DNA of 39,153 bases. It comes from Flavipsychrobacter sp. (GTDB lineage: Bacteria > Bacteroidota > Bacteroidia > Chitinophagales > Chitinophagaceae). Within the stretch, counting starts at the first letter, position 1. Each line of letters begins with the position of its first letter. The notes under the pieces were generated by a model. That model was not told where the DNA came from. It ran no database searches and saw only the letters and a program-made list of their open reading frames with translations. The position numbers were made by a program, and so were the translations under genes. Positions 5,306-13,748 of this stretch are shown piece by piece. Location: the NCBI GenBank assembly GCA_017849575.1, contig JAFIGV010000021.1:1-39153 (forward strand), written 5' to 3'.

Positions 5306-6304
5306 CTAATCTTCGCTTCTTTGCAAGCGGCTGATGTCCATACCGAAGTGCAGACCTCTTTCGCCCAAAACCTGCTCTATTTCAGAAAGTGATTTCTGAC
5401 CGAAGTTGCGGAACTTCATCAGTTCTTCCTGAGTATATTGTACCAGCTCGCTCAGTGAGTTGATCTTGGCAGCTTTCAGACAGTTGAAGGCACGTACAGA
5501 AAGTTCAAGATCTTCAAGTGGTGTTTGCAATACCTTTCGCAGTTGCAATGTCTCTTCATCAACGATGGCTTCTTTTTCTTCGCGCTTGGTATCGAGGCTG
5601 ATGTTTTCATCGGTGATGATCATCAGATGCTGGATCAGGATGCGGCTGGCTTCCTTCACCGCTTCTTCCGGATGGATGGTACCATCGGTAGAAACTTCCA
5701 TGATCAGCTTTTCGAAGTCGGTACGCTGCTCAACACGCGTATTCTCAATGCTGTACTTCACATTTTTGATCGGAGTGTAGATAGAGTCAATCGCGATGAT
5801 GCCCATGGGAGCGCCCTCTTTGGGACGGTTGTCTTCCGCAGGTACATAACCACGACCTTTTCCTATAAACAATTCGATCTGGAAGGTAGTTCCAGGCTCC
5901 ATGTTGCAGATCACCAGTTCAGGATTCATCACTTCAAAGTTGGGAAGTGCATCACCGATCATACCGGCAGTGAACGTTTCCTGACCTTTGATGGTCAGCT
6001 CTACACGGTCTGAATGAACATCATGCTCAGCCGCTTTTTTCAAACGAACTTGTTTGAGGTTGAGGATGATCTCTGTAACGTCTTCGAGCACACCTTTGAT
6101 GGTAGCAAATTCATGGTCTGCACCCTGCACTTTGATAGAAGTGATCGCATAACCTTCGAGTGAAGAAAGCAATACGCGACGCAGGGCATTACCAATAGTT
6201 ACACCGTAGCCTGGCTCAAGCGGACGGAATTCAAACTGAGCTTCAAAATCTGTAGCTTTTTGAAGAACGATCTTGTCTGGTTTCTGGAAATTGAGAATTG
6301 CCAT
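5306..6304 (-). CDS. rpoA: DNA-directed RNA polymerase alpha subunit
   Basis: The alpha subunit dimerises to nucleate RNA polymerase assembly. The N-terminal domain shows FEFRPLEPGYGVTIGNALRR and LLSSLEGYAITSIKVQG. The C-terminal domain shows LELSVRAFNCLKAAKI and FGQKSLSEIEQVL, which contact DNA and activators. I chose the ATG at 6304 (MAILNFQKPDK), giving 332 aa, the normal length. The frame stays open for 41 codons upstream to a TTG, but that part is unlike any RpoA and is read as leader. It lies upstream of rplQ; the usual upstream neighbour rpsD is over 6 kb away. Confidence 0.98.
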   Translation of the reverse strand: MAILNFQKPDKIVLQKATDFEAQFEFRPLEPGYGVTIGNALRRVLLSSLEGYAITSIKVQGADHEFATIKGVLEDVTEIILNLKQVRLKKAAEHDVHSDRVELTIKGQETFTAGMIGDALPNFEVMNPELVICNMEPGTTFQIELFIGKGRGYVPAEDNRPKEGAPMGIIAIDSIYTPIKNVKYSIENTRVEQRTDFEKLIMEVSTDGTIHPEEAVKEASRILIQHLMIITDENISLDTKREEKEAIVDEETLQLRKVLQTPLEDLELSVRAFNCLKAAKINSLSELVQYTQEELMKFRNFGQKSLSEIEQVLGERGLHFGMDISRLQRSED

Positions 6305-6453
6305 GTTGAGAAGTTTTTCTGTTTTTTTAAGGTTTTCCCCGGGAAGATTCCCATGTTCCGCATTCGTTGCCCGGCACACTTCAAAGGCTCGGGCTCTCAC
6401 ACCCACCTTCAAATTCTTGCTTCGCAAACGGACTTAGAACTTTTTAAGGACGG

Positions 6454-6461
6454 CAAAGGTA
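6454..6461 (-). promoter_or_regulatory. Candidate -7 box (TACCTTTG) for rpoA-rplQ
   Basis: Read on the minus strand, TACCTTTG matches TAnnTTTG. It sits about 150 nt upstream of the rpoA ATG, implying a long leader. A dedicated promoter fits the separation of rpoA from the rest of the alpha operon. Upstream DNA is purine-rich on the plus strand (GGGGAAAAA repeats) and shows no clear -33 TTG. Confidence 0.5.
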
Positions 6462-6518
6462 AGGGAAAAAGGGGAAAAAGGGGAAAATGAAATAAAATAC
6501 GCCTAAAAGCCCATTAAC

Positions 6519-6857
6519 CTATTTAGCTGACTTCGCTATCATTTGTGATAACCATTTCAACTCCATATCAGAAATGCTAATTTGATCGGACTTATCATAA
6601 ATCGCAGCTAGGTAAACTGTTTCGTCTTTGATCAACACGAATGTTATCACTCTTGCTCCACCTGACTTTCCCCTTCCCTTGCTGGTTATTTGTAGTCGAA
6701 TTTTGTAAAATCCATTTCCCAAAGAAGCGTCCTGTGTGGGCTTTTCTTGTAAAGAAATGACTAATTGGCACAAATCTGATTTTAGCGATGAATACTTTTT
6801 TGCAAGCCTTTTCGCTTCCTTTTCGAATGAGGCAATGGTCTTAACCGTGTATCTCAT
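6519..6857 (-). CDS. RelE/HigB2-like type II toxin
   Basis: The 112-aa basic protein begins with a helix (SFEKEAKRLAKKYSSLKSDL). It continues with the strand pattern of the RelE/ParE fold: GFYKIRLQITSKGRGKSGGARVITF, then DETVYLAAIYDKSD. This layout, with RLQI..GKSGGARVI, is typical of HigB2-type RelE toxins, which usually cut mRNA on the ribosome. The catalytic residues cannot be certified by eye. It overlaps the 3' end of the upstream partner by 17 bp, so the pair is translationally coupled in antitoxin-first order. Confidence 0.8.
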   Translation of the reverse strand: MRYTVKTIASFEKEAKRLAKKYSSLKSDLCQLVISLQEKPTQDASLGNGFYKIRLQITSKGRGKSGGARVITFVLIKDETVYLAAIYDKSDQISISDMELKWLSQMIAKSAK

Positions 6858-7056
6858 TCAAAAAATCCTTTGCTGGTCGCGATTTTATCTTTCCTTTCGA
6901 AGCTAAAATAGCACTATTCATACTTTCAGCTATTTGCCTTATTAGCTGTTGTTTTGCTCCGGACTCATCCTGCACGTTCACGAAGTCGAAATTTTTTAGT
7001 AGTTCCATGAAGAATGGATATTTGTCGTCCTGAATTTGCAACACTACTTGTTTCAT
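6841..7056 (-). CDS. Antitoxin partner of the RelE-like toxin
   Basis: This small 71-aa protein has an N-terminal strand (KQVVLQIQDDKYPFFMELLKNF). A helical, basic C-terminal stretch (MNSAILASKGKIKSRPAKDFLNEIHG) would wrap the toxin. Position, size and the 17-bp overlap with the following RelE-like gene identify it as the antitoxin. No helix-turn-helix is evident, so self-regulation would depend on an N-terminal ribbon-type fold or the complex. It belongs to the accessory block between the two halves of the alpha operon. Confidence 0.72.
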   Translation of the reverse strand: MKQVVLQIQDDKYPFFMELLKNFDFVNVQDESGAKQQLIRQIAESMNSAILASKGKIKSRPAKDFLNEIHG

Positions 7057-7061
7057 GAAAG

Positions 7062-7069
7062 CAAATTTA
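7062..7069 (-). promoter_or_regulatory. Candidate -7 box (TAAATTTG) for the toxin-antitoxin pair
   Basis: The minus-strand TAAATTTG box ends only 5 nt before the antitoxin ATG at 7056. If used, the transcript would begin at or next to the start codon and be leaderless. No clear -33 TTG is seen. Confidence 0.45.
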
Positions 7070-7307
7070 CGGAGTTAGGCAGGAACGGCGTGCAGGAAGG
7101 AAATAAGAGTCGAAAAAGGCACCATCATCCGATTCTTACCTGGCAACCAGATTTAGAATTTTCTATGGGCGGCTGAGAAATGAAAAAATTGGAATGAATG
7201 AAAAGCGAATCAAAACATAAAAATTTGGATTCCCAGTATGGAGCGGTTTGGAATGAGATGATTACCACCCTGCTAATCATTTAGACAAAAAAACTTGTCA
7301 CGAAATT

Positions 7308-7338
7308 TTGGTTTGTTTTATAAACTAATCTACATTTG
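7308..7338 (+). promoter_or_regulatory. Bacteroidota-type promoter (-33 TTG, -7 TACATTTG)
   Basis: TTG at 7308-7310 is followed 20 nt later by TACATTTG (7331-7338). This fits the TTG/TAnnTTTG architecture used by the Bacteroidota primary sigma factor. It lies 16 nt before the ATG at 7355. The rest of 7070-7300 is AT-rich and shows no gene or clear structure. Confidence 0.7.
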
Positions 7339-7354
7339 AGTCAAATTTACAATC

Positions 7355-7960
7355 ATGCAACATAACGCATCAAACTTTTCGGCAGAGGAAAGCCTCAAAC
7401 TGATCAACGAAATGATTGCGCAGGCAAAACAAGATTATCACAACAAGAGCTTTTATTTTCTGCTATGGGGTTGGCTGTTATTTTTTACTGGCATCGGTCA
7501 TTACCTATTATTGCAGTCGGAATTTATGCCTTATGCCAACTGGCTTTGGCTGATACAGGCGGCGATAGGCGGCACGGTAAGTTTTTTTCATGGGTCGAAA
7601 GAAGACAGGAAAAGTGGTGCCGGAAACAGCCATGTGAACAGGACTATTATGAACATCTGGCTAGGGTTTGGTCTCACTTTATTTTTCATCATTTTTAGCG
7701 CCGGGCAAATGCGCATAAACTCAATTCCGTTTATCTTACTTGTCACCGGGATGCCCACATTTCTTTCTGGTCGCATCCTTCGGTTTCCGGCTTTGGTGTG
7801 GGGAGGCATTAGTTTTTGGCTATTCGGTATTGCTGCATTGTATGTGCCCGAACAGTTTACCACACTGCTTTTCAGTGCGGCAATTTTTTGCGGTTATCTT
7901 GTGCCCGGTTTTGCGTTAAGGTCTGACGAAAAAAGAAAAAGCAGTGTTCAAAGAGCTTGA
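7355..7960 (+). CDS. Uncharacterised membrane protein paired with a winged-helix regulator
   Basis: The 201-aa protein has a soluble N-terminal stretch (~1-28) and then about six hydrophobic segments (near 29-48, 58-76, 100-117, 124-138, 146-163, 167-186). It has a charged loop after the second segment (GSKEDRKSGAGNSH) and a basic tail. I recognise no enzyme or transporter motif. Its last 17 bp overlap the downstream regulator gene, so the two are made together. Such membrane protein/wHTH pairs often form a sensing or self-regulating unit, but that is inference. A good promoter precedes it. Confidence 0.8.
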   Translation: MQHNASNFSAEESLKLINEMIAQAKQDYHNKSFYFLLWGWLLFFTGIGHYLLLQSEFMPYANWLWLIQAAIGGTVSFFHGSKEDRKSGAGNSHVNRTIMNIWLGFGLTLFFIIFSAGQMRINSIPFILLVTGMPTFLSGRILRFPALVWGGISFWLFGIAALYVPEQFTTLLFSAAIFCGYLVPGFALRSDEKRKSSVQRA

Positions 7961-8225
7961 TCCGATACTACACAATCAGCTAAGGCTGGCGATTATTTCG
8001 CTGCTCATTTCTGTGGAGAAAGCTGAGTTTCAATACCTGCGGGAGAAAACAAAAGCGACAGCAGGAAATCTTAGCGTACAAGTGCAGAAGCTAAAAGATG
8101 CCGGATACATTCAGGTGGAGAAATCGTTTAGAAATAATTACCCGCTCACAACGTGCAGCATTACGAAAAAGGGCATTGAGTCCTTTGAGCAATATGTGGA
8201 TGCACTAAAGACCTATATCAAATAG
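7944..8225 (+). CDS. Winged-helix DNA-binding regulator (HTH_34/ArsR-like)
   Basis: The 93-aa protein is essentially one winged helix-turn-helix: LHNQLRLAIISLLISVEKAEFQYLREKTKATAGNLSVQVQKLKDAGYIQVEK, a basic wing, then ITKKGIESFEQYVDAL. This matches the small winged-helix family seen beside membrane proteins in Bacteroidota. The start is a GTG at 7944 inside the upstream gene; starting there keeps LDPILHNQLRLAI, the usual N-terminus of the domain. It probably regulates its own operon. No ligand domain is present. Confidence 0.88.
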   Translation: MFKELDPILHNQLRLAIISLLISVEKAEFQYLREKTKATAGNLSVQVQKLKDAGYIQVEKSFRNNYPLTTCSITKKGIESFEQYVDALKTYIK

Positions 8226-8368
8226 CGGCTGCTTGTGAATGTGTCTTGTGAATTTTTTAATGCTAAAAATTGTTTAATTAAAATAGGTCGGGGCAACATG
8301 CTTCATCAGGCGATTTTAAGGACAAAGCAGGAAAGAATTGCTCGGGATTAAACCTCGTCCGACAACTC

Positions 8369-8866
8369 CTATTCGGCGCCCTGCTTTTTAGCACCTGCCT
8401 TTTTGAGTAACTGCATCAGCACTCCGGAGTTTTCCTCCATTTTTTTGATCGCCTCTTCGTAGGGTTCAGCCTCGCCGGTTTGCTCATCTATACAATAGCA
8501 ACCGTCAGACAACTGCTCAAGCTGCCTGCACCGAAGTACAAACCCTTGTCCTGCATAATTGAATTGAAACACAAGTGAACTTCCCTCAAGGTGCATATTG
8601 TTCTTTTCTACAACTGCAGGTTTTAGTTCCGCCTTCCCGCAGCGCCAGGTACTGATGTCTGCCACCATCAGTCCCACCCGCAACGTTCCTTTGCCCAGAA
8701 ATCGGCTCAGATAATACGATTCACTGCACAGCTTCAAAATTATATCGCCGGTTGGTTGTTCACTTAGCTCAAGCACCTTATGAGCGCTATGCCGAAGGGA
8801 AGATCGAAGTTGCTTCCACCTGCGGCGATGCCAGAAGCGCTGCCAGAATGTGAAGGTGTAGATCAT
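8369..8866 (-). CDS. Hypothetical protein, second gene of an uncharacterised pair
   Basis: I do not recognise this 165-aa protein. The N-terminus is strongly basic and aromatic (FTFWQRFWHRRRWKQLRSSLRHS) with no signal peptide. The middle alternates strand-like segments (GDIILKLCSESYYLSRF, SLVFQFNYAGQGFVLRCRQLEQL). The C-terminus is a charged helix ending KKAGAKKQGAE. It starts 20 nt after the preceding gene stops, so the two probably form an operon and may act together. Weak family conservation cannot be judged here. Confidence 0.65.
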   Translation of the reverse strand: MIYTFTFWQRFWHRRRWKQLRSSLRHSAHKVLELSEQPTGDIILKLCSESYYLSRFLGKGTLRVGLMVADISTWRCGKAELKPAVVEKNNMHLEGSSLVFQFNYAGQGFVLRCRQLEQLSDGCYCIDEQTGEAEPYEEAIKKMEENSGVLMQLLKKAGAKKQGAE

Positions 8867-8886
8867 CAGCTCAGTAGATTAAAAGA

Positions 8887-9747
8887 TTACTGCCAGTAAT
8901 GTTCGTCGAAGACTTTTTTAAAGCGCTTTACCACATCAAATTCCGGTAACGCGAGAGTAACGGAGCCGAGTTTCAAATACGTATCAGATGTCCAGCCAAA
9001 CAATGCAAGCGATTTGCCCAATGCTTCAAATTCCCTGAGCCACGGTGCCCAAGCATCAGCGGAAGCTCCATCCGGCAAGGTCTCCAGTGCTCGCTTAGCT
9101 TGTGCCGCGCCTGCAGCATACCCTGTTAACTCCAGCAAACGGGAGAAATACAAATAAAACTTACGCTGTTCCTCATCAAAAATAGGCGGCAGCTCGAACG
9201 ATTCGTACAAGGGTTTGTATTGATTAAGCCAGTTGTGGCAAATGGCGTAGTCGGCAATGGCATCGGGTGCGGAAATGAAAAAATCCTGTGTTGCCTGGGC
9301 GCAACGATTGGAAATTAATAACATTTCGAGTGGCGGCTCAAACCCTGTTGTATCTTCGGACCAAAACTCCCAAGGTATTTCTGTAAACCCCTCGAGCGTA
9401 TGTTCTTTTGTGCAAAAGCAGCCGCAATGTGAAACCTCTGTAAAACCATCCCGTGTGTCTTCGAAAATGAAGCCCACATATTTCTTACTTTTTGAGCCTA
9501 TAAGCATGTAGCCGCTTTTTCCCTTGTTTTCGCACGAAGAGCTTTCGCAAAAACCAGGCAATAATTCGAGCGTTGTGTCTCCCCCCTCCTTTAAGTCCTC
9601 AAAAACCTCACTGAGCCTGTTGACGAGCGTATCCTTTTTGCCACCGCTGCCCGCAGTCTGTTCTTGCCCAAGCACCTCAAGCATTGAAACATTCATCTCG
9701 CGGATGGCTTGCAATAAATAAGATTTTCGGGAGGTAAGAAATTGCAT
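8887..9747 (-). CDS. Hypothetical protein with a cysteine cluster, first gene of the pair
   Basis: This is a 286-aa soluble protein of unknown function. Five cysteines gather in two places: Cys67 and Cys72 (FCESSSCENKG), and Cys108, Cys110 and Cys112 (HCGCFC). This suggests a metal site or a structural disulfide cluster. The rest is acidic with Trp/Phe-rich segments (EIPWEFWSED, ALFGWTSD) and looks alpha-helical after residue 150. There is no signal peptide or membrane helix. The ATG at 9747 is the first in frame; a later Met at residue 18 is an alternative. No known domain was recognised. Confidence 0.65.
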   Translation of the reverse strand: MQFLTSRKSYLLQAIREMNVSMLEVLGQEQTAGSGGKKDTLVNRLSEVFEDLKEGGDTTLELLPGFCESSSCENKGKSGYMLIGSKSKKYVGFIFEDTRDGFTEVSHCGCFCTKEHTLEGFTEIPWEFWSEDTTGFEPPLEMLLISNRCAQATQDFFISAPDAIADYAICHNWLNQYKPLYESFELPPIFDEEQRKFYLYFSRLLELTGYAAGAAQAKRALETLPDGASADAWAPWLREFEALGKSLALFGWTSDTYLKLGSVTLALPEFDVVKRFKKVFDEHYWQ

Positions 9748-9998
9748 GAGTATTTGTTGTATGTTGGAATGAAGGAATAGTTGAAATTTTCAAGGCGGTC
9801 GGTGTTCATGGTTCCGATTTTGGTAATTCCAAAGTTCGTATCGATATTTCGCGTTATGACAAGTGGGGCGGCTTCGGGCAACGTGGCAGAGACCACTACA
9901 GAATTTTTTTTAGTGGCTTGGTTTATTGTTGTGAAAGCAACAGAATCCAGTTTTCGCAATTTCAATAAAACATAGTTGTGAATTACCAGAGGAAGCAA
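9748..9998 (-). pseudogene. Possible gene remnant or unrecognised small gene
   Basis: A minus-strand frame is open from a TTG at 9998 to a stop at 9693, running 55 bp into the next gene. The part inside the spacer reads like real protein: LRKLDSVAFTTINQATKKNS, VVVSATLPEAAPLVITRNID, TNFGITKIGTMNTDRLENF. The FGI..G..NTDR segment recalls C-terminal pieces of larger Bacteroidota proteins. There is no ATG near the start and no signal sequence. It may be the 3' remnant of a larger deleted gene, or noise. The opposite-strand frame (9781-9975) is less protein-like. Confidence 0.3.
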
Positions 9999-10010
9999 AA
10001 TTGAATCTAA

Positions 10011-11003
10011 CTAATCCCCTGTATAGTTTAAAACTGATATCAAATCCACAAACATCTCAAAATAATTGACCTGAATATCTATCTCGCTAACTGCTTTTGC
10101 AATGTTATAGCAAACAAAACCCATGAAAGCGATATTCTTCTTTTCCTCTGCGAGGTTATTCCAAAGATTTCGAAAATAATCAGAACAAACCATAACTTTT
10201 AGCTCATAGCGACGTTCAAGATTGCTTTCTTGAGTGTTGATTTCTGTGATAACGCTATCTAACTCTTGCGTAAACGCTTCAACCTGTATTCTACTGGAAT
10301 TCTCATTTGATAAATCTTCTGAAATGATTCTTACGTCTTGGAAAAACTTATCGCAATTTTGCTTAGTAAACGAAGAAATCTGCGACAGTTTTGGGTCGAA
10401 GTGCCTCATTTTTTCAATTTCGAGACTGTCATTTAAAGCGGCTTCAAACTTTTCTGTTTCAAAATAAACGCCACAACGTGCTATTAATGGGTTGAGATAC
10501 GAAGGGCATATTCTACAAGCAAAAGTGTAAAGATCAATTGCTGAACGGTAATTCTTTAGCTTGAAGTGACAAAAAGCCTGATTGTTCAAAACTCTTGCTT
10601 TTGTCGCATCGTAGTCATAACCGAAATCATTTGACAAGTCAATATTTCTTAATTTATCGAGATGGCAAATAGCCTTGCTGAAAAATTTAATCGCTGTCTG
10701 GAAGTTTTTCTTATAGAGGTAACATTCTCCGGTTGTCTGATTGTTTTCAAAAGTGTCAGAAAGATCTCTGGAGTGCTTAAGGTCAAGCAAAGCTTTATCA
10801 TATTCCTCAAGTATTCGAAAACACAATCCTCGCTTGAAGTAGGGATACCAGTTTTCAGGATAAAGTTCAATCGCTTGCGAGAAATAAAAAATAGCTTGCG
10901 TTAGATTGCCGTTGTCAAATTCTTCGTCACCCTTTATCAAATAAAAAAACGCCTCCTTATTCCATGTCCTACCAAGCCGTTTAGCCAATGTTTCGAAATT
11001 CAT
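10011..11003 (-). CDS. Tetratricopeptide repeat protein
   Basis: The 330-aa protein has at least four TPR-like helix pairs in its first ~220 residues (YLIKGDEEFDNGNLTQAIFY, FKRGLCFRILEEYDKALLDL, NNQAFCHFKLKNYRSAIDLY, and a segment near ARCGVYFETEKFEAALNDS). A helical C-terminus of about 110 residues follows (from FTKQNCDKFFQDVRIISED) and matches nothing I know. There is no signal peptide, so it is probably a cytoplasmic scaffold. The gene is clearly AT-richer than the ribosomal genes nearby, which fits recent acquisition together with the two small genes upstream. Confidence 0.85.
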   Translation of the reverse strand: MNFETLAKRLGRTWNKEAFFYLIKGDEEFDNGNLTQAIFYFSQAIELYPENWYPYFKRGLCFRILEEYDKALLDLKHSRDLSDTFENNQTTGECYLYKKNFQTAIKFFSKAICHLDKLRNIDLSNDFGYDYDATKARVLNNQAFCHFKLKNYRSAIDLYTFACRICPSYLNPLIARCGVYFETEKFEAALNDSLEIEKMRHFDPKLSQISSFTKQNCDKFFQDVRIISEDLSNENSSRIQVEAFTQELDSVITEINTQESNLERRYELKVMVCSDYFRNLWNNLAEEKKNIAFMGFVCYNIAKAVSEIDIQVNYFEMFVDLISVLNYTGD

Positions 11004-11119
11004 TCGATTCCTATTAATAATTACTTTCCTTTGAAATATATTCCATCATGTTCGCCATGTTAGCGGAGCGCATCTCGAACTAAAATTGAACCATTTGTGA
11101 ATTCATTTAAATATTTAAC

Positions 11120-11332
11120 TTAGAAATCCTGGTCAATTTCAAAGCCATGCCTTTTCAAGGCTATTTTCGCACATTCTAAATCCTCAGCAACAATTACAAC
11201 TGTCTCACCATCGAAATAAACCCCTTCGTCATTCAAAGTGCGGTAGTCAAAGTCTTCCGAAGTCCGAGCACTATTAACCTTTTTTAGAAAAACGCATTTT
11301 TTCCCAATGAGCTGAAATAAATAATCTGCCAT
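11120..11332 (-). CDS. Small hypothetical protein (70 aa)
   Basis: The protein is short, soluble and acidic. Its layout (CVFLKKVNSARTSEDFDYRT, GVYFDGETVVIVAEDLECAK, IALKRHGFEIDQDF) alternates strands with a helix. The last part (DLECAKIALKRHGF) resembles small DUF2007-type putative signal-transducing proteins, but the match is too weak to assign. It lies between the TPR gene and a membrane-anchored hypothetical gene on the same strand. Confidence 0.55.
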   Translation of the reverse strand: MADYLFQLIGKKCVFLKKVNSARTSEDFDYRTLNDEGVYFDGETVVIVAEDLECAKIALKRHGFEIDQDF

Positions 11333-11363
11333 CTGCTTATTGACTAAAAAATTCTAAATACAT

Positions 11364-11828
11364 TTATTCGAAACTGTAGAACCTTTGCTTTTCGGCAACG
11401 TTGTCGAGTTGCAAAATTTTACGTTGAATAACTTCTTCCTTAATTGAAATTGATGATGGAAATTTTATTTCATTACTTATTATTTCATCAATTTTTGCTA
11501 TATCTGATTCACGCCAATTCTTCAAATACTCGCCGCCCTCTTCTATATCCCATGTCTCGAGACAAACTTTTCTGTTTCTGTAAGCAAACGAGTACATCTT
11601 ATGACGAAAGTGGAACATTTCGTTTTCGAAACGAGTCATAGCCGCCTTTTCACGTTCTTTATGCCGTTGCCTTTCCTCCGCATATTTTGCCTGTTTACTC
11701 ATTAGGATACATAGTCCAATAAGCGCCAAAGAAACGATGAGAACGGTAGGGTTACCACTTGCGAAAGTCCCACCAATAATCATCAGGACAACCATCACAC
11801 TTATATACCAGTCAAGAAATGTTTTCAT
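11364..11828 (-). CDS. Hypothetical membrane-anchored helical protein
   Basis: The 154-aa protein has two N-terminal hydrophobic helices (about 7-24 and 28-44) in a hairpin. A highly charged coiled-coil-like stretch follows (KYAEERQRHKEREKAAMTRFENEMFHF), then a mixed C-terminus rich in Ile/Glu/Lys. No family is recognised. It is AT-rich and sits in the accessory block upstream of the 70-aa gene, possibly in the same transcript. Confidence 0.6.
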   Translation of the reverse strand: MKTFLDWYISVMVVLMIIGGTFASGNPTVLIVSLALIGLCILMSKQAKYAEERQRHKEREKAAMTRFENEMFHFRHKMYSFAYRNRKVCLETWDIEEGGEYLKNWRESDIAKIDEIISNEIKFPSSISIKEEVIQRKILQLDNVAEKQRFYSFE

Positions 11829-11931
11829 TACAATTTAATCTATTGAACTTGATATTAATTCTTGAGGTTCATGAGATGTTTTAAAGAAACGCATCCCGAA
11901 CACAATATGACACAAATTTACAATCTGATAT

Positions 11932-12561
11932 CTACTCCTCCAACTCCTTCGGGATATTTCCAAAAAGTTCCTCCAGGTTTAGTGCAAATCCATCAAGCAC
12001 TGTGCTTTTCATCAAGTCATCCTCACCCATCAGCTTAGAAGGCATGTACTTTCCATCTACAAGCGTGTACACCAAAAAACTATGATCTTGCGGTGAGACG
12101 ATCCAATATTCGTTTACACCGGATTCTTCATAGACCTCGTACTTATTTTTGAGCTCTTTGCGATTGTTGGAAGGAGAAAGTACTTCAATAACAACGTCGG
12201 GTGCTCCGATGCAACCGCGTTTGTCAAGTTTTGCCGGATCGCAGACCACACAGATGTCGGGTTGTACCACGGTAATCACATCTTCGTCGCGTTTGGACTT
12301 TCGCGGCAGACGAACATCGAAAGGCGCAACAAATGCCTGACATGCCTTATTTCTTAAAAAACTCCACAAATGACCATGGAGATCGGAAACAAGCCGTTGA
12401 TGAATGTGATTGGGCGCAGGACTCATCCTGAATACCTTTCCTTTGATAAGTTCCAACCGTTCTTCGATCGTCCATTTCAGGTAATCGGCATAGCTGTATT
12501 CACCGCCATAAGCAAAATCAGGTTCATTTGTTTGACTGACAGAAGTTTTATCGGCATTCAT
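11932..12561 (-). CDS. Uma2 family (DUF820) endonuclease-fold protein
   Basis: The 209-aa protein matches the Uma2/DUF820 family, which has a PD-(D/E)xK nuclease fold. Features are YSYADYLKWTIEERLELIKGKVFRMSPAPNHIHQ at the N-terminus, QPDICVVCD, then PDVVIEVLSPSNNRKELKNK with the candidate catalytic Asp/Glu/Lys, and YEESGVNEYWIVSPQ. These proteins are abundant in cyanobacteria and environmental Bacteroidota. Their substrate is largely unknown, and links to mobile DNA have been proposed. Here it is alone, convergent with nothing, just downstream of the rpsD terminator on the same strand. Confidence 0.93.
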   Translation of the reverse strand: MNADKTSVSQTNEPDFAYGGEYSYADYLKWTIEERLELIKGKVFRMSPAPNHIHQRLVSDLHGHLWSFLRNKACQAFVAPFDVRLPRKSKRDEDVITVVQPDICVVCDPAKLDKRGCIGAPDVVIEVLSPSNNRKELKNKYEVYEESGVNEYWIVSPQDHSFLVYTLVDGKYMPSKLMGEDDLMKSTVLDGFALNLEELFGNIPKELEE

Positions 12562-12587
12562 ATTTCTAAATTACAATAAAAGCAAAA

Positions 12588-12614
12588 AAACGCCTCCCAA
12601 ACCGGAAGGCGTTT
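12588..12614 (-). terminator. Intrinsic terminator after rpsD
   Basis: An 8-bp stem (12588-12595 with 12607-12614, AAACGCCT/AGGCGTTT) encloses an 11-nt loop and is followed on the minus strand by a U-run (complement of 12584-12590). It lies 20 nt past the rpsD stop, ending the infA-rpsD transcript before the accessory block. Confidence 0.85.
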
Positions 12615-12633
12615 CGAATAAAACTATGTTTGA

Positions 12634-13239
12634 TTACTTAGAGTACAACTCTACAATCAGTTGCTCCTTGATATTTTCAGGAACACTTTCGCGCTCAGGA
12701 TGAGCAATGTAAGTTCCTTTCATATCCTTTTCGCTCCAATCTACCCAGTTGATCTTAGGATTTCTACCACGAACCATGCTGGTTACTGCGGTATTGGCTT
12801 TGCTCTTGGGCTTCAGTTCGATCATATCGCCGGGCTTCAACTGATAAGAAGGTATGTTTACGATCTCACCATTCACCATGACGTGCTTATGCGATACGAG
12901 CTGGCGTGCAGCAGGACGTGTAGGAGCAATACCCATACGATAAACTGTATTGTCCAAACGTGCTTCAAGCAGTTTGATCAGGTTCTCACCGGTTGCACCT
13001 TTCAGACGAGACGCTTCAACATAAGTATTGCGGAATTGCTTTTCCAACACACCATAAGTGTATTTAGCCTTTTGCTTTTCCTTGAGCTGAATGGCGTATT
13101 CCGACTGTGATTTACGCTTCTTGGAGTTTCCGTGCATTCCCGGAGGGTTGCTGTTCTTTCCAAGATTTTTGCCTGAACCCAGGATGGGCTCGCCGAAAAT
13201 TCGGCAGATTCTGTTTTTGGGGCCTGTATAACGTGCCAT
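12634..13239 (-). CDS. rpsD: 30S ribosomal protein S4
   Basis: S4 is a primary 16S rRNA binder that nucleates 30S assembly, and in several bacteria it represses its own operon. The 201-aa protein has the N-terminal family signature MARYTGPKNRICRIFGEPIL. The S4 RNA-binding domain follows (LEARLDNTVYRMGIAPTRPAARQLVSHKHV, then VNGEIVNIPSY). The usual CxxC zinc knuckle is absent (a single Cys at about residue 13), as in zinc-free S4. It is last in the infA-rpmJ-rpsM-rpsK-rpsD cluster, followed by a terminator instead of rpoA. The spacer before it carries strong interleaved inverted repeats. Confidence 0.98.
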   Translation of the reverse strand: MARYTGPKNRICRIFGEPILGSGKNLGKNSNPPGMHGNSKKRKSQSEYAIQLKEKQKAKYTYGVLEKQFRNTYVEASRLKGATGENLIKLLEARLDNTVYRMGIAPTRPAARQLVSHKHVMVNGEIVNIPSYQLKPGDMIELKPKSKANTAVTSMVRGRNPKINWVDWSEKDMKGTYIAHPERESVPENIKEQLIVELYSK

Positions 13240-13248
13240 GAAATAAAA

Positions 13249-13340
13249 TTTGCGATTTTATTTTCTAATAGCTTTTCCGTTTCATCAAAATCGCAAAACC
13301 GGAAGCGAAAAAGCTGTATGATATAGGAATCCGAAACGGA
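13249..13340 (-). promoter_or_regulatory. Candidate S4 autoregulatory leader with pseudoknot topology
   Basis: In RNA order, segment b' (13315-13300) pairs with b (13279-13270): AGCTTTT/AAAAGCT plus CCG/CGG around a 6-nt bulge. Segment a' (13297-13287) pairs with a (13259-13249), 11 perfect base pairs (TTTGCGATTTT/AAAATCGCAAA). The order b'-a'-b-a is interleaved, which is a pseudoknot. The last strand ends 9 nt before the rpsD AUG, so folding would block translation. A third helix, 13333-13340 with 13276-13283 (8 bp), overlaps b and offers an alternative state. S4 represses its own synthesis through structured leaders in E. coli and B. subtilis; regulation here is inferred. Confidence 0.6.
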
Positions 13341-13748
13341 CTAAACGCGGCGCTTTTTGGGAGGACGGCAACCGTTGTGCGGAAGTGGTGTGACATCTTT
13401 GATAGAGGTAACTTCCAGACCTATCTGCGACAGCGCCCGTATAGCACCTTCGCGGCCAGAACCTGGTCCTTTTACAAATACATCCACTTTTTTAAGCCCT
13501 GCATCAATAGCTACTTTTCCGCAATCTTGAGCCGCCATCTGTGCTGCGTAAGGAGTGTTCTTTTTCGAACCACGGAAGCCCATCTTACCGGCAGACGACC
13601 ATGAAATAACCTGACCGCTCTTGTTGGTAAGCGAAATGATGATGTTGTTGAAAGCTGCATTGATGTGGGCGTCTCCATGTGGATCCACCTTCACGATACG
13701 CTTTTTTGCAGCGGATTTGCCGCCTTTACCGGCTTGTGCTTTTGCCAT
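13341..13748 (-). CDS. rpsK: 30S ribosomal protein S11
   Basis: S11 forms part of the 30S platform near the mRNA exit. The 135-aa protein shows the family core [56 protein letters not shown] and the C-terminus [18 protein letters not shown]. Length is normal, with a Lys/Ala-rich start ([20 protein letters not shown]). Its spacers are unusually long and structured for a ribosomal operon: 198 nt upstream to rpsM and 101 nt downstream to rpsD. Confidence 0.98.

What the first reader, a model, noticed from the sequence alone, without database searches (positions are those of the whole stretch)
13240..13340. Candidate S4 autoregulatory pseudoknot immediately upstream of rpsD
An 11-bp and a 10-bp helix are interleaved (pseudoknot topology), ending 9 nt before the AUG, with a competing 8-bp helix reaching the rpsK stop. 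S4 is a known autoregulator through pseudoknotted leaders in E. coli and structured leaders in B. subtilis; S4 leader families for some Bacteroidota classes have, to my recollection, been proposed, so this could be a member or a new type.
Basis: partly seen in the sequence, partly recalled or inferred. Interest (0 to 1): 0.75.

Follow-up and report, generated by a model that had tools for sequence, protein, structure and literature searches.

The report
Pseudoknot leader RNA before rpsD
The messenger RNA just ahead of the gene for ribosomal protein S4 folds into a knotted shape that evolution has kept across one bacterial family, and it probably lets S4 switch off its own production when there is too much of it.

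Summary
On the minus strand, between rpsK and rpsD, a 10-bp helix (P1) and an 11-bp helix (P2) interleave and end 9 nt before the rpsD AUG; 0 of 2000 shuffles match it. The pseudoknot is conserved in the window's family (Chitinophagaceae, judged by kin): 180 of 199 distinct leaders beat at least 95 of 100 shuffles. Both helices carry compensatory changes. Under a tree-aware null, five P1 pairs and one P2 pair are significant, although P2 was not in the model used for aligning. In the window's own genome the model has one hit, here. Rfam 15 has no S4 family that matches it, while its S4 hairpin models RF03139 and RF03141 do match other Bacteroidota loci. Models of it match none of 80 leaders from other families beyond chance.

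Best reading: a new structural class of S4 autoregulatory leader that pairs up the adenine-rich region next to the start codon. S4 binding and repression are inferred, not shown. A constant U-rich loop beside an invariant A-run hints at a triple helix; the test was not significant. The competing 8-bp helix is real but not conserved.

The parts
13306..13315 (-). P1, 5' arm (AGCUUUUUCG)
   Evidence: compensatory changes
13302..13304 (-). P1 extension, 5' side (UUC), beyond a C.A mismatch (13305 with 13280)
   Evidence: in the window genus these three pairs do not vary
13298..13301 (-). loop L1 as left by the 11-bp P2 of the window; in most relatives L1 is longer and holds a constant U-run
13287..13297 (-). 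P2, 5' arm (UUUGCGAUUUU)
   Evidence: compensatory changes
13281..13283 (-). P1 extension, 3' side (GAA)
13270..13279 (-). P1, 3' arm (CGGAAAAGCU)
13260..13269 (-). loop L3, A-rich
13249..13259 (-). P2, 3' arm (AAAAUCGCAAA), at -20 to -10 from the AUG; in the model it is the strand hidden from the ribosome
13240..13248 (-). nine bases between P2 and the rpsD AUG
12634..13239 (-). rpsD, ribosomal protein S4, the presumed controlled gene and ligand
   Evidence: Pfam Ribosomal_S4 and S4 domains
13341..13748 (-). rpsK, ribosomal protein S11, upstream gene
13332..13340 (-). 5' arm of the competing helix, next to the rpsK stop; found in the window, not conserved
13276..13284 (-). 3' arm of the competing helix, overlapping P1

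Best explanation
It is a cis-acting mRNA leader that controls translation of rpsD and, by inference, answers to its own product S4. Shown here: the rpsK-rpsD spacer of this family encodes a conserved interleaved (H-type) pseudoknot, held by compensatory changes, placed right at the rpsD start and specific to rpsD in the genome. Inferred: when S4 is in excess it binds and stabilises the pseudoknot; the A-rich 3' arm of P2 stays paired, so that the upstream adenines and the unstructured stretch that Bacteroidota ribosomes rely on are hidden, and rpsD is not translated. When 16S rRNA draws S4 off, P2 opens, P1 alone leaves the stretch next to the AUG free, and translation resumes. Whether the 30S subunit is kept away or trapped is open.
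For: Interleaved helices beyond chance (0 of 2000 shuffles). Conserved: 180 of 199 distinct family leaders beat at least 95 of 100 shuffles. Compensatory changes in both helices on alignments not fitted to structure, own-tail against swapped-tail test for P2 (117 leaders, 0 of 2000 permutations), tree-aware null. Specific place: one hit of model R1 at E<=1 in the own genome (150 of 1769 candidates scored); 16 of 16 R2 places next to rpsD. P2 ends 0-20 nt, median 13, before the AUG in 193 leaders. Bacteroidia ribosomes depend on upstream adenines (-3, -6, -12, -13) and low structure rather than Shine-Dalgarno pairing (PMC9976891, passages). S4 controls itself through unrelated leaders in other bacteria (PMC7247131, section). 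In the window, where rpsD is split from rpoA, the leader has stayed with rpsD.
Against: No binding or expression data. Six of 199 family leaders, from three genera, lack the pseudoknot, so it is dispensable there. No likeness to the S4 site on 16S rRNA was tested. Two of five summary measures on A5 are not exceptional against shuffles (61 and 22 of 500). On the 50-sequence alignment no single pair reaches E<=0.05 in the tree-aware null. One by one, only 82 of 117 P2 helices beat 95 of 100 shuffled tails.
Confidence: 0.68

Rival explanations
1. A conserved translational element that works without S4: a pseudoknot that recruits or delays the 30S subunit, for example through bS1, or that sets the ratio of rpsK and rpsD translation.
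For: It abuts the start codon. Pseudoknots and AU-rich leaders are reported bS1 targets (PMC10931766, passages).
Against: r-protein leaders before rpsD have arisen several times with S4 as proven or likely ligand. The structure is found at rpsD and, apart from two weak places at E 0.008, at no other listed place.
Confidence: 0.18
2. A leader that binds another protein of the operon, such as S11 or S13, or an RNA processing and stability element between rpsK and rpsD.
For: It sits inside the rpsM-rpsK-rpsD run, and helices are common processing sites (recalled).
Against: It lies downstream of rpsM and rpsK and always ends within 20 nt of the rpsD AUG in the 193 leaders measured; a processing site would not need the interleaved second helix.
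Confidence: 0.11
3. A chance pair of inverted repeats, a DNA repeat element or an intrinsic terminator.
For: The spacer is AU-rich and its nested folding energy is ordinary.
Against: 0 of 2000 shuffles; compensatory changes; a single model hit in the genome; no U-run follows P1.
Confidence: 0.02

Closest known systems
S4-Flavobacteria ribosomal protein leader, Rfam RF03141 (PMC7247131)
   Same: Same phylum, same gene, same spacer before rpsD, probable S4 ligand
   Different: A hairpin with inner bulges and no second interleaved helix in the model; does not match here, and models R1 and R2 do not match the loci that carry it
S4-Bacteroidia ribosomal protein leader, Rfam RF03139 (PMC7247131)
   Same: Same phylum and gene, probable S4 ligand
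   Different: A short hairpin followed by a constant AUCGCGGCUG tail; no match here
E. coli alpha operon leader, Rfam RF00140 Alpha_RBS
   Same: S4-controlled, pseudoknotted, at a start codon (pseudoknot recalled; S4 control from PMC10931766 passages)
   Different: It precedes rpsM, not rpsD; no match at this spacer. Weak matches below cut-off in relatives lie about 1 kb upstream
Bacillus subtilis rpsD leader
   Same: S4 represses its own rpsD translation from a leader right before rpsD
   Different: Reported not to form a pseudoknot (PMC10931766, passages); rpsD stands alone there
Mycobacterial rpsO (S15) pseudoknot leader
   Same: A pseudoknot upstream of the start region, proposed to block ribosome binding when its r-protein binds (PMC10931766, passages)
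   Different: Other protein, other lineage, no sequence relation looked for
Telomerase RNA pseudoknot
   Same: Two-stem pseudoknot; a U-rich first loop parallel to an A-run of the second stem (strand geometry recalled; triplex in PMC4689454 passages)
   Different: Triples are only a suggestion here; unrelated in origin and function

Membership tests
Ribosomal protein leaders in general | Lies consistently upstream of an r-protein gene | tested here: met
   R2: 16 of 16 places next to rpsD; R1: 17 of 21 next to rpsD, 2 in genomes whose rpsD position was not listed to me, 2 elsewhere at E 0.008 (coordinates)
Ribosomal protein leaders in general | Secondary structure supported by covariation | tested here: met
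Ribosomal protein leaders in general | Binds an r-protein of its operon and represses it | not testable with these tools
   needs binding and reporter assays
S4-Flavobacteria (RF03141) | Match to the covariance model | tested here: not met
   no match in the window, in 20 family loci or 12 more; the model does match L161, L166 and L174
S4-Bacteroidia (RF03139) | Match to the covariance model | tested here: not met
   same scans; the model does match L162 and L168
Alpha_RBS (RF00140) | Match to the covariance model at this spacer | tested here: not met
   no match at the spacer
H-type pseudoknot | Two helices interleaved, both kept by compensatory change | tested here: met
Triple-helix pseudoknot of the telomerase type | Constant U-rich L1 beside a constant A-run in stem 2 | tested here: met
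   three L1 columns and five A columns at 100% of 96 rows (alignment A5); in the window genus the U-run is largely paired in a longer P2 instead
Triple-helix pseudoknot of the telomerase type | Three-way covariation, U.A-U to C.G-C | tested here: inconclusive
   C after the U-run in 10 of 31 leaders with G after the A-run, 8 of 162 without; 8 independent pairs on supported branches: about 4 same way, 0 opposite, 4 no difference, p 0.125

The most novel reading that the evidence does not exclude
A new class of S4 autoregulatory leader, confined to the window's family apart from a smaller look-alike in one sister family, in which repression is exerted by a telomerase-like U.A-U triple-helix pseudoknot. 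Its A-strand would be the very adenine tract that Bacteroidota ribosomes use in place of a Shine-Dalgarno sequence.
Probability: 0.28. Interest if true: 0.75.

Novelty: new variant of a known kind. Interest (0 to 1): 0.6.

Why it matters
S4 is controlled by structurally unrelated leaders in different bacterial groups. This would add a well-supported pseudoknot class in a large Bacteroidota family for which Rfam 15 shows none, beside two unrelated hairpin classes in the same phylum: three solutions for one protein. It offers a direct test of how a leader can switch translation in bacteria that do not rely on Shine-Dalgarno pairing, because the paired strand is the upstream adenine tract itself. 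If the triple helix holds, an r-protein leader would work through a triplex at the start site; I know of no such case (recalled, not searched for exhaustively).

Tried and rejected
Known families: Rfam scans of the window and of 32 related loci gave no S4 leader. Reach beyond the family: R1 and R2 without filters on 80 rpsD leaders of other families gave 0 and 1 match (E 0.71, taken as chance). Ten more order-level spacers were only looked at by eye. For three of the 60 class-level loci my script did not recognise the start, and they are missing from the helix listing, though not from the model scans (L177, L181, L182).

Competing helix: real in the window, rejected as a conserved switch. An outer helix, UUCAUUU with AAAUGAA, encloses the pseudoknot in part of the second clade (34 of 142 leaders tested at p<=0.05); the arms seen hardly vary, so it stays unsupported. 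A first search for rpoA with a motif recalled from memory found 0 of 110; the motif was wrong, and a search with the window's own RpoA replaced it. Alpha_RBS: its matches below cut-off lie about 1 kb upstream of rpsD, not here.

Alignment limits: in A3 the P2 5' arms of some subclades are out of register by a column, so P2 was not counted on it by the pair counter; the swap test and the R2-fitted alignment A5 were used. P1 counts on A5 lean towards the model, which was fitted to P1. For the R2 test on loci not used in building it I gave 54 of the 60 loci: two without the pseudoknot (L286, L294) and four of the other clade (L331, L334, L335, L336) were left out beforehand. My notebook says 19 of 21 R1 places lie next to rpsD; rechecking against listed coordinates bears out 17.

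Full report
WHAT IS THERE. The finding lies on the minus strand in the spacer between rpsK (13341-13748, S11) and rpsD (12634-13239, S4); Pfam confirms both genes. Read 5' to 3', the spacer holds P1 5' AGCUUUUUCG, a loop, P2 5' UUUGCGAUUUU, P1 3' CGGAAAAGCU, an A-rich loop and P2 3' AAAAUCGCAAA, then nine bases to the AUG. The best interleaved gapless pair scores 48.6, which 0 of 2000 dinucleotide shuffles reach (in a first run of 1000 one shuffle ties it up to rounding). Nested folding is unremarkable (z -0.60). Evaluated as lone helices, P1 with its extension is worth -11.6 kcal/mol, P2 -9.0 and the competing helix -8.1.

WHO HAS IT. The titles include Taibaiella, Flavipsychrobacter, Niastella, Arachidicoccus, Parafilimonas and Segetibacter; a few metagenome bins bear other names, such as Bacteroides and Azovibrio, which I take for mislabelled. 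That the window belongs to Chitinophagaceae is judged from these kin. Without duplicates there are 199 leaders. For an interleaved helix pair ending within 26 nt of the AUG, 180 of 199 beat at least 95 of 100 shuffles. Of the 19 others, 14 show the motif by eye, with a mismatch or bulge that the strict scorer rejects, and 5 do not; one that passes (L270) does not show it either. That makes 193 of 199, of which 179 rest on the script and 14 on eye. The six without it come from genera g15, g30 and g44. A tree of rpsD from 190 of the 199 has a branch with full support between 59 rows, with the window, and 131 rows. Both sides have the pseudoknot, so it is probably ancestral in the family.

COVARIATION. 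On MAFFT alignments not fitted to a structure: in the window's genus (7 sequences) 95.8% of cells pair, against at most 60.7% with partners slid by 1-3 columns, and 5 pairs change on both sides, 3 in P1 and 2 in P2. In 50 sequences of the window's clade it is 87.6% against at most 47.1%. In 65 sequences of the other clade, P1 only, it is 86.3% against at most 60.8%, with 137 cells changed on both sides against 36.4 in shuffles. P2 was tested without aligning its arms: over 117 leaders each loop pairs better with its own tail (mean 19.1) than with tails of other leaders (16.3), and 0 of 2000 permutations reach the observed mean; taken singly, 82 of 117 beat at least 95 of 100 shuffled tails. 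P2 occurs in many matched versions, such as CGAUUUU/AAAAUCG, CGGUUUU/AAAACCG, CGAUCUUU/AAAGAUCG, AAGCUUUUU/AAAAAGCUU, CAGUUUUUU/AAAAAACUG, CCGCUUU/AAAGCGG and CGGCUUUU/AAAAGCCG.

A STRICTER CONTROL. A script of mine replays substitutions along a tree, in the manner of R-scape. On the 65-sequence alignment the three significant column pairs are all P1 pairs. On the 50-sequence alignment none reaches E<=0.05, but ranks 1, 2, 3, 5, 7, 8 and 9 are P1 pairs. On 96 matches aligned to the P1-only model R2, six pairs are significant: five are in P1, which that alignment favours, and the sixth (35,71) is a P2 pair, of which the model knew nothing. There P1 plus P2 pair in 85.1% of cells against at most 54.4% when slid, with 318 double-change cells against 102.7 in shuffles; two of the five measures, the numbers of double-change pairs and of pair types, are reached by 61 and 22 of 500 shuffles.

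SPECIFICITY. Model R1 (window's clade) has one hit at E<=1 in the window's own genome, at this spacer (E 1.7e-12; 150 of 1769 candidates were scored). Among 79 family genomes R1 matches in 20, at 21 places with E<=0.01: 17 are next to rpsD by the coordinates, two are in genomes whose rpsD position was not listed to me (G250, G244), and two lie elsewhere at E 0.008. The 59 genomes without an R1 match include many of the other clade, for which R1 was not built. R2 in 149 genomes of the order matches in 16, each next to rpsD and each in the window's family; two listed family genomes do not match, the window's own and G020, and 113 genomes without a match were not listed. Of 54 leaders not used to build R2, 52 match it; three of these repeat leaders already held.

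OUTSIDE THE FAMILY. In 20 order-level and 60 class-level loci the spacer is often under 60 nt, and R1 and R2 find nothing there beyond one match at E 0.71. The known Bacteroidota S4 leaders occur in some: RF03141 in L161, L166, L174 and RF03139 in L162, L168, out of 20 loci scanned. They do not match ours: not in the window, 20 family loci or 12 more. The paper that proposed them describes both as hairpins without meaningful similarity to each other, to earlier S4 leaders or to the rRNA (PMC7247131; abstract and sections 5, 7, 9, 10 read). Searches for a report of this structure listed none by title or abstract start; of the listed papers I read those sections and passages of PMC10931766 and PMC9976891.

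HOW IT PROBABLY WORKS. Shown: the structure and its fixed place. P2 ends 0-20 nt, median 13, before the AUG in 193 leaders; in the window its 3' arm spans -20 to -10. From papers: Bacteroidia do not generally use Shine-Dalgarno pairing and rely on adenines at -3, -6, -12, -13 and on low structure (PMC9976891, passages). S4 is the confirmed ligand of unrelated leaders in Gammaproteobacteria and Firmicutes. Inferred: S4 stabilises the pseudoknot, P2 hides the adenine tract, initiation stops. This could be by blocked loading, as suggested for mycobacterial S15 pseudoknots, or by entrapment, as reported for S15 in E. coli (PMC10931766, passages). In 106 of 109 relatives with at least 700 nt downstream, rpoA follows rpsD (20-246 nt in 105, 668 in one). 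In the window rpoA is at 5306-6304, and three relatives (L002, L005, L037) have no rpoA within 2.5 kb. There the leader has stayed with rpsD, which fits S4 as the controlled product.

A POSSIBLE TRIPLE HELIX. In the second clade the first loop is U-rich and unpaired in the P1/P2 fold, yet three of its uridine columns are constant in 96 rows, as are five A columns of the P2 3' strand. A loop of this kind beside such a strand is the arrangement of the telomerase pseudoknot, which a triplex stabilises (PMC4689454, passages; the strand geometry is recalled). Where the A-run is followed by G, the loop U-run is followed by C in 10 of 31 leaders, against 8 of 162 otherwise. In the window's clade all six leaders with G have C, and four without G also have it. 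That is the pattern expected if U.A-U becomes C.G-C. But on the tree there are 8 independent comparisons on supported branches: about 4 go the same way, none the other way, about 4 show no difference (p 0.125). Twenty-one leaders with G have A instead of C. In the window's genus the U-run is largely paired in a longer P2. I keep this as a lead.

VERDICT. A real, conserved pseudoknot leader of rpsD, and a new structural variant of the known kind 'S4 autoregulatory leader'. The structure is well supported by sequence comparison; S4 binding and repression are inferred.

Noticed in passing
window 6305-12633: rpsD and rpoA are about 6.3 kb apart, with a Uma2-type gene (11932-12561) and other genes between, whereas rpoA follows rpsD within 668 nt in 106 of 109 relatives; L002, L005 and L037 are split too.
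   Followed up: partly
window 12584-12614: An inverted repeat (AAACGCCT ... AGGCGTTT) with a U-run on the minus strand just after rpsD looks like an intrinsic terminator, so rpsD may end its transcript here (read; no terminator scan was run).
   Followed up: no
L118 and L125, last 55 bases before rpsD: Two genomes of another family of the same order have a smaller interleaved pair before rpsD, with P1 differing by compensatory changes around the same bulged U. Only these two genomes of that family are held; R1 and R2 do not match them.
   Followed up: partly
L042 1429-1510, L003 1443-1542, L011 1472-1556 and five other loci: Matches to Alpha_RBS (RF00140) below its cut-off (21.7-28.2 bits, cut-off 38) in 8 of 12 loci, about 1 kb upstream of rpsD, probably at the rpsM start; they may only reflect likeness of the rpsM coding start.
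   Followed up: no
L052, L065, L204, L214, L218 and others: A possible outer helix (UUCAUUU before P1 with AAAUGAA after P2) in part of the second clade would bring the fold nearer the AUG; 34 of 142 leaders tested at p<=0.05.
   Followed up: partly
A1 columns 17-20 with 42-45: In the window's clade P1 is continued by a tandem G.A step (GA/GA in 31 of 50 rows) and two pairs, U-A and C-G, that are constant in 50 of 50 rows; a candidate protein contact.
   Followed up: no
L192, L294, L270 (genus g15); L098, L286 (g30); L221 (g44): Family members without the pseudoknot; how they control rpsD was not looked into.
   Followed up: no
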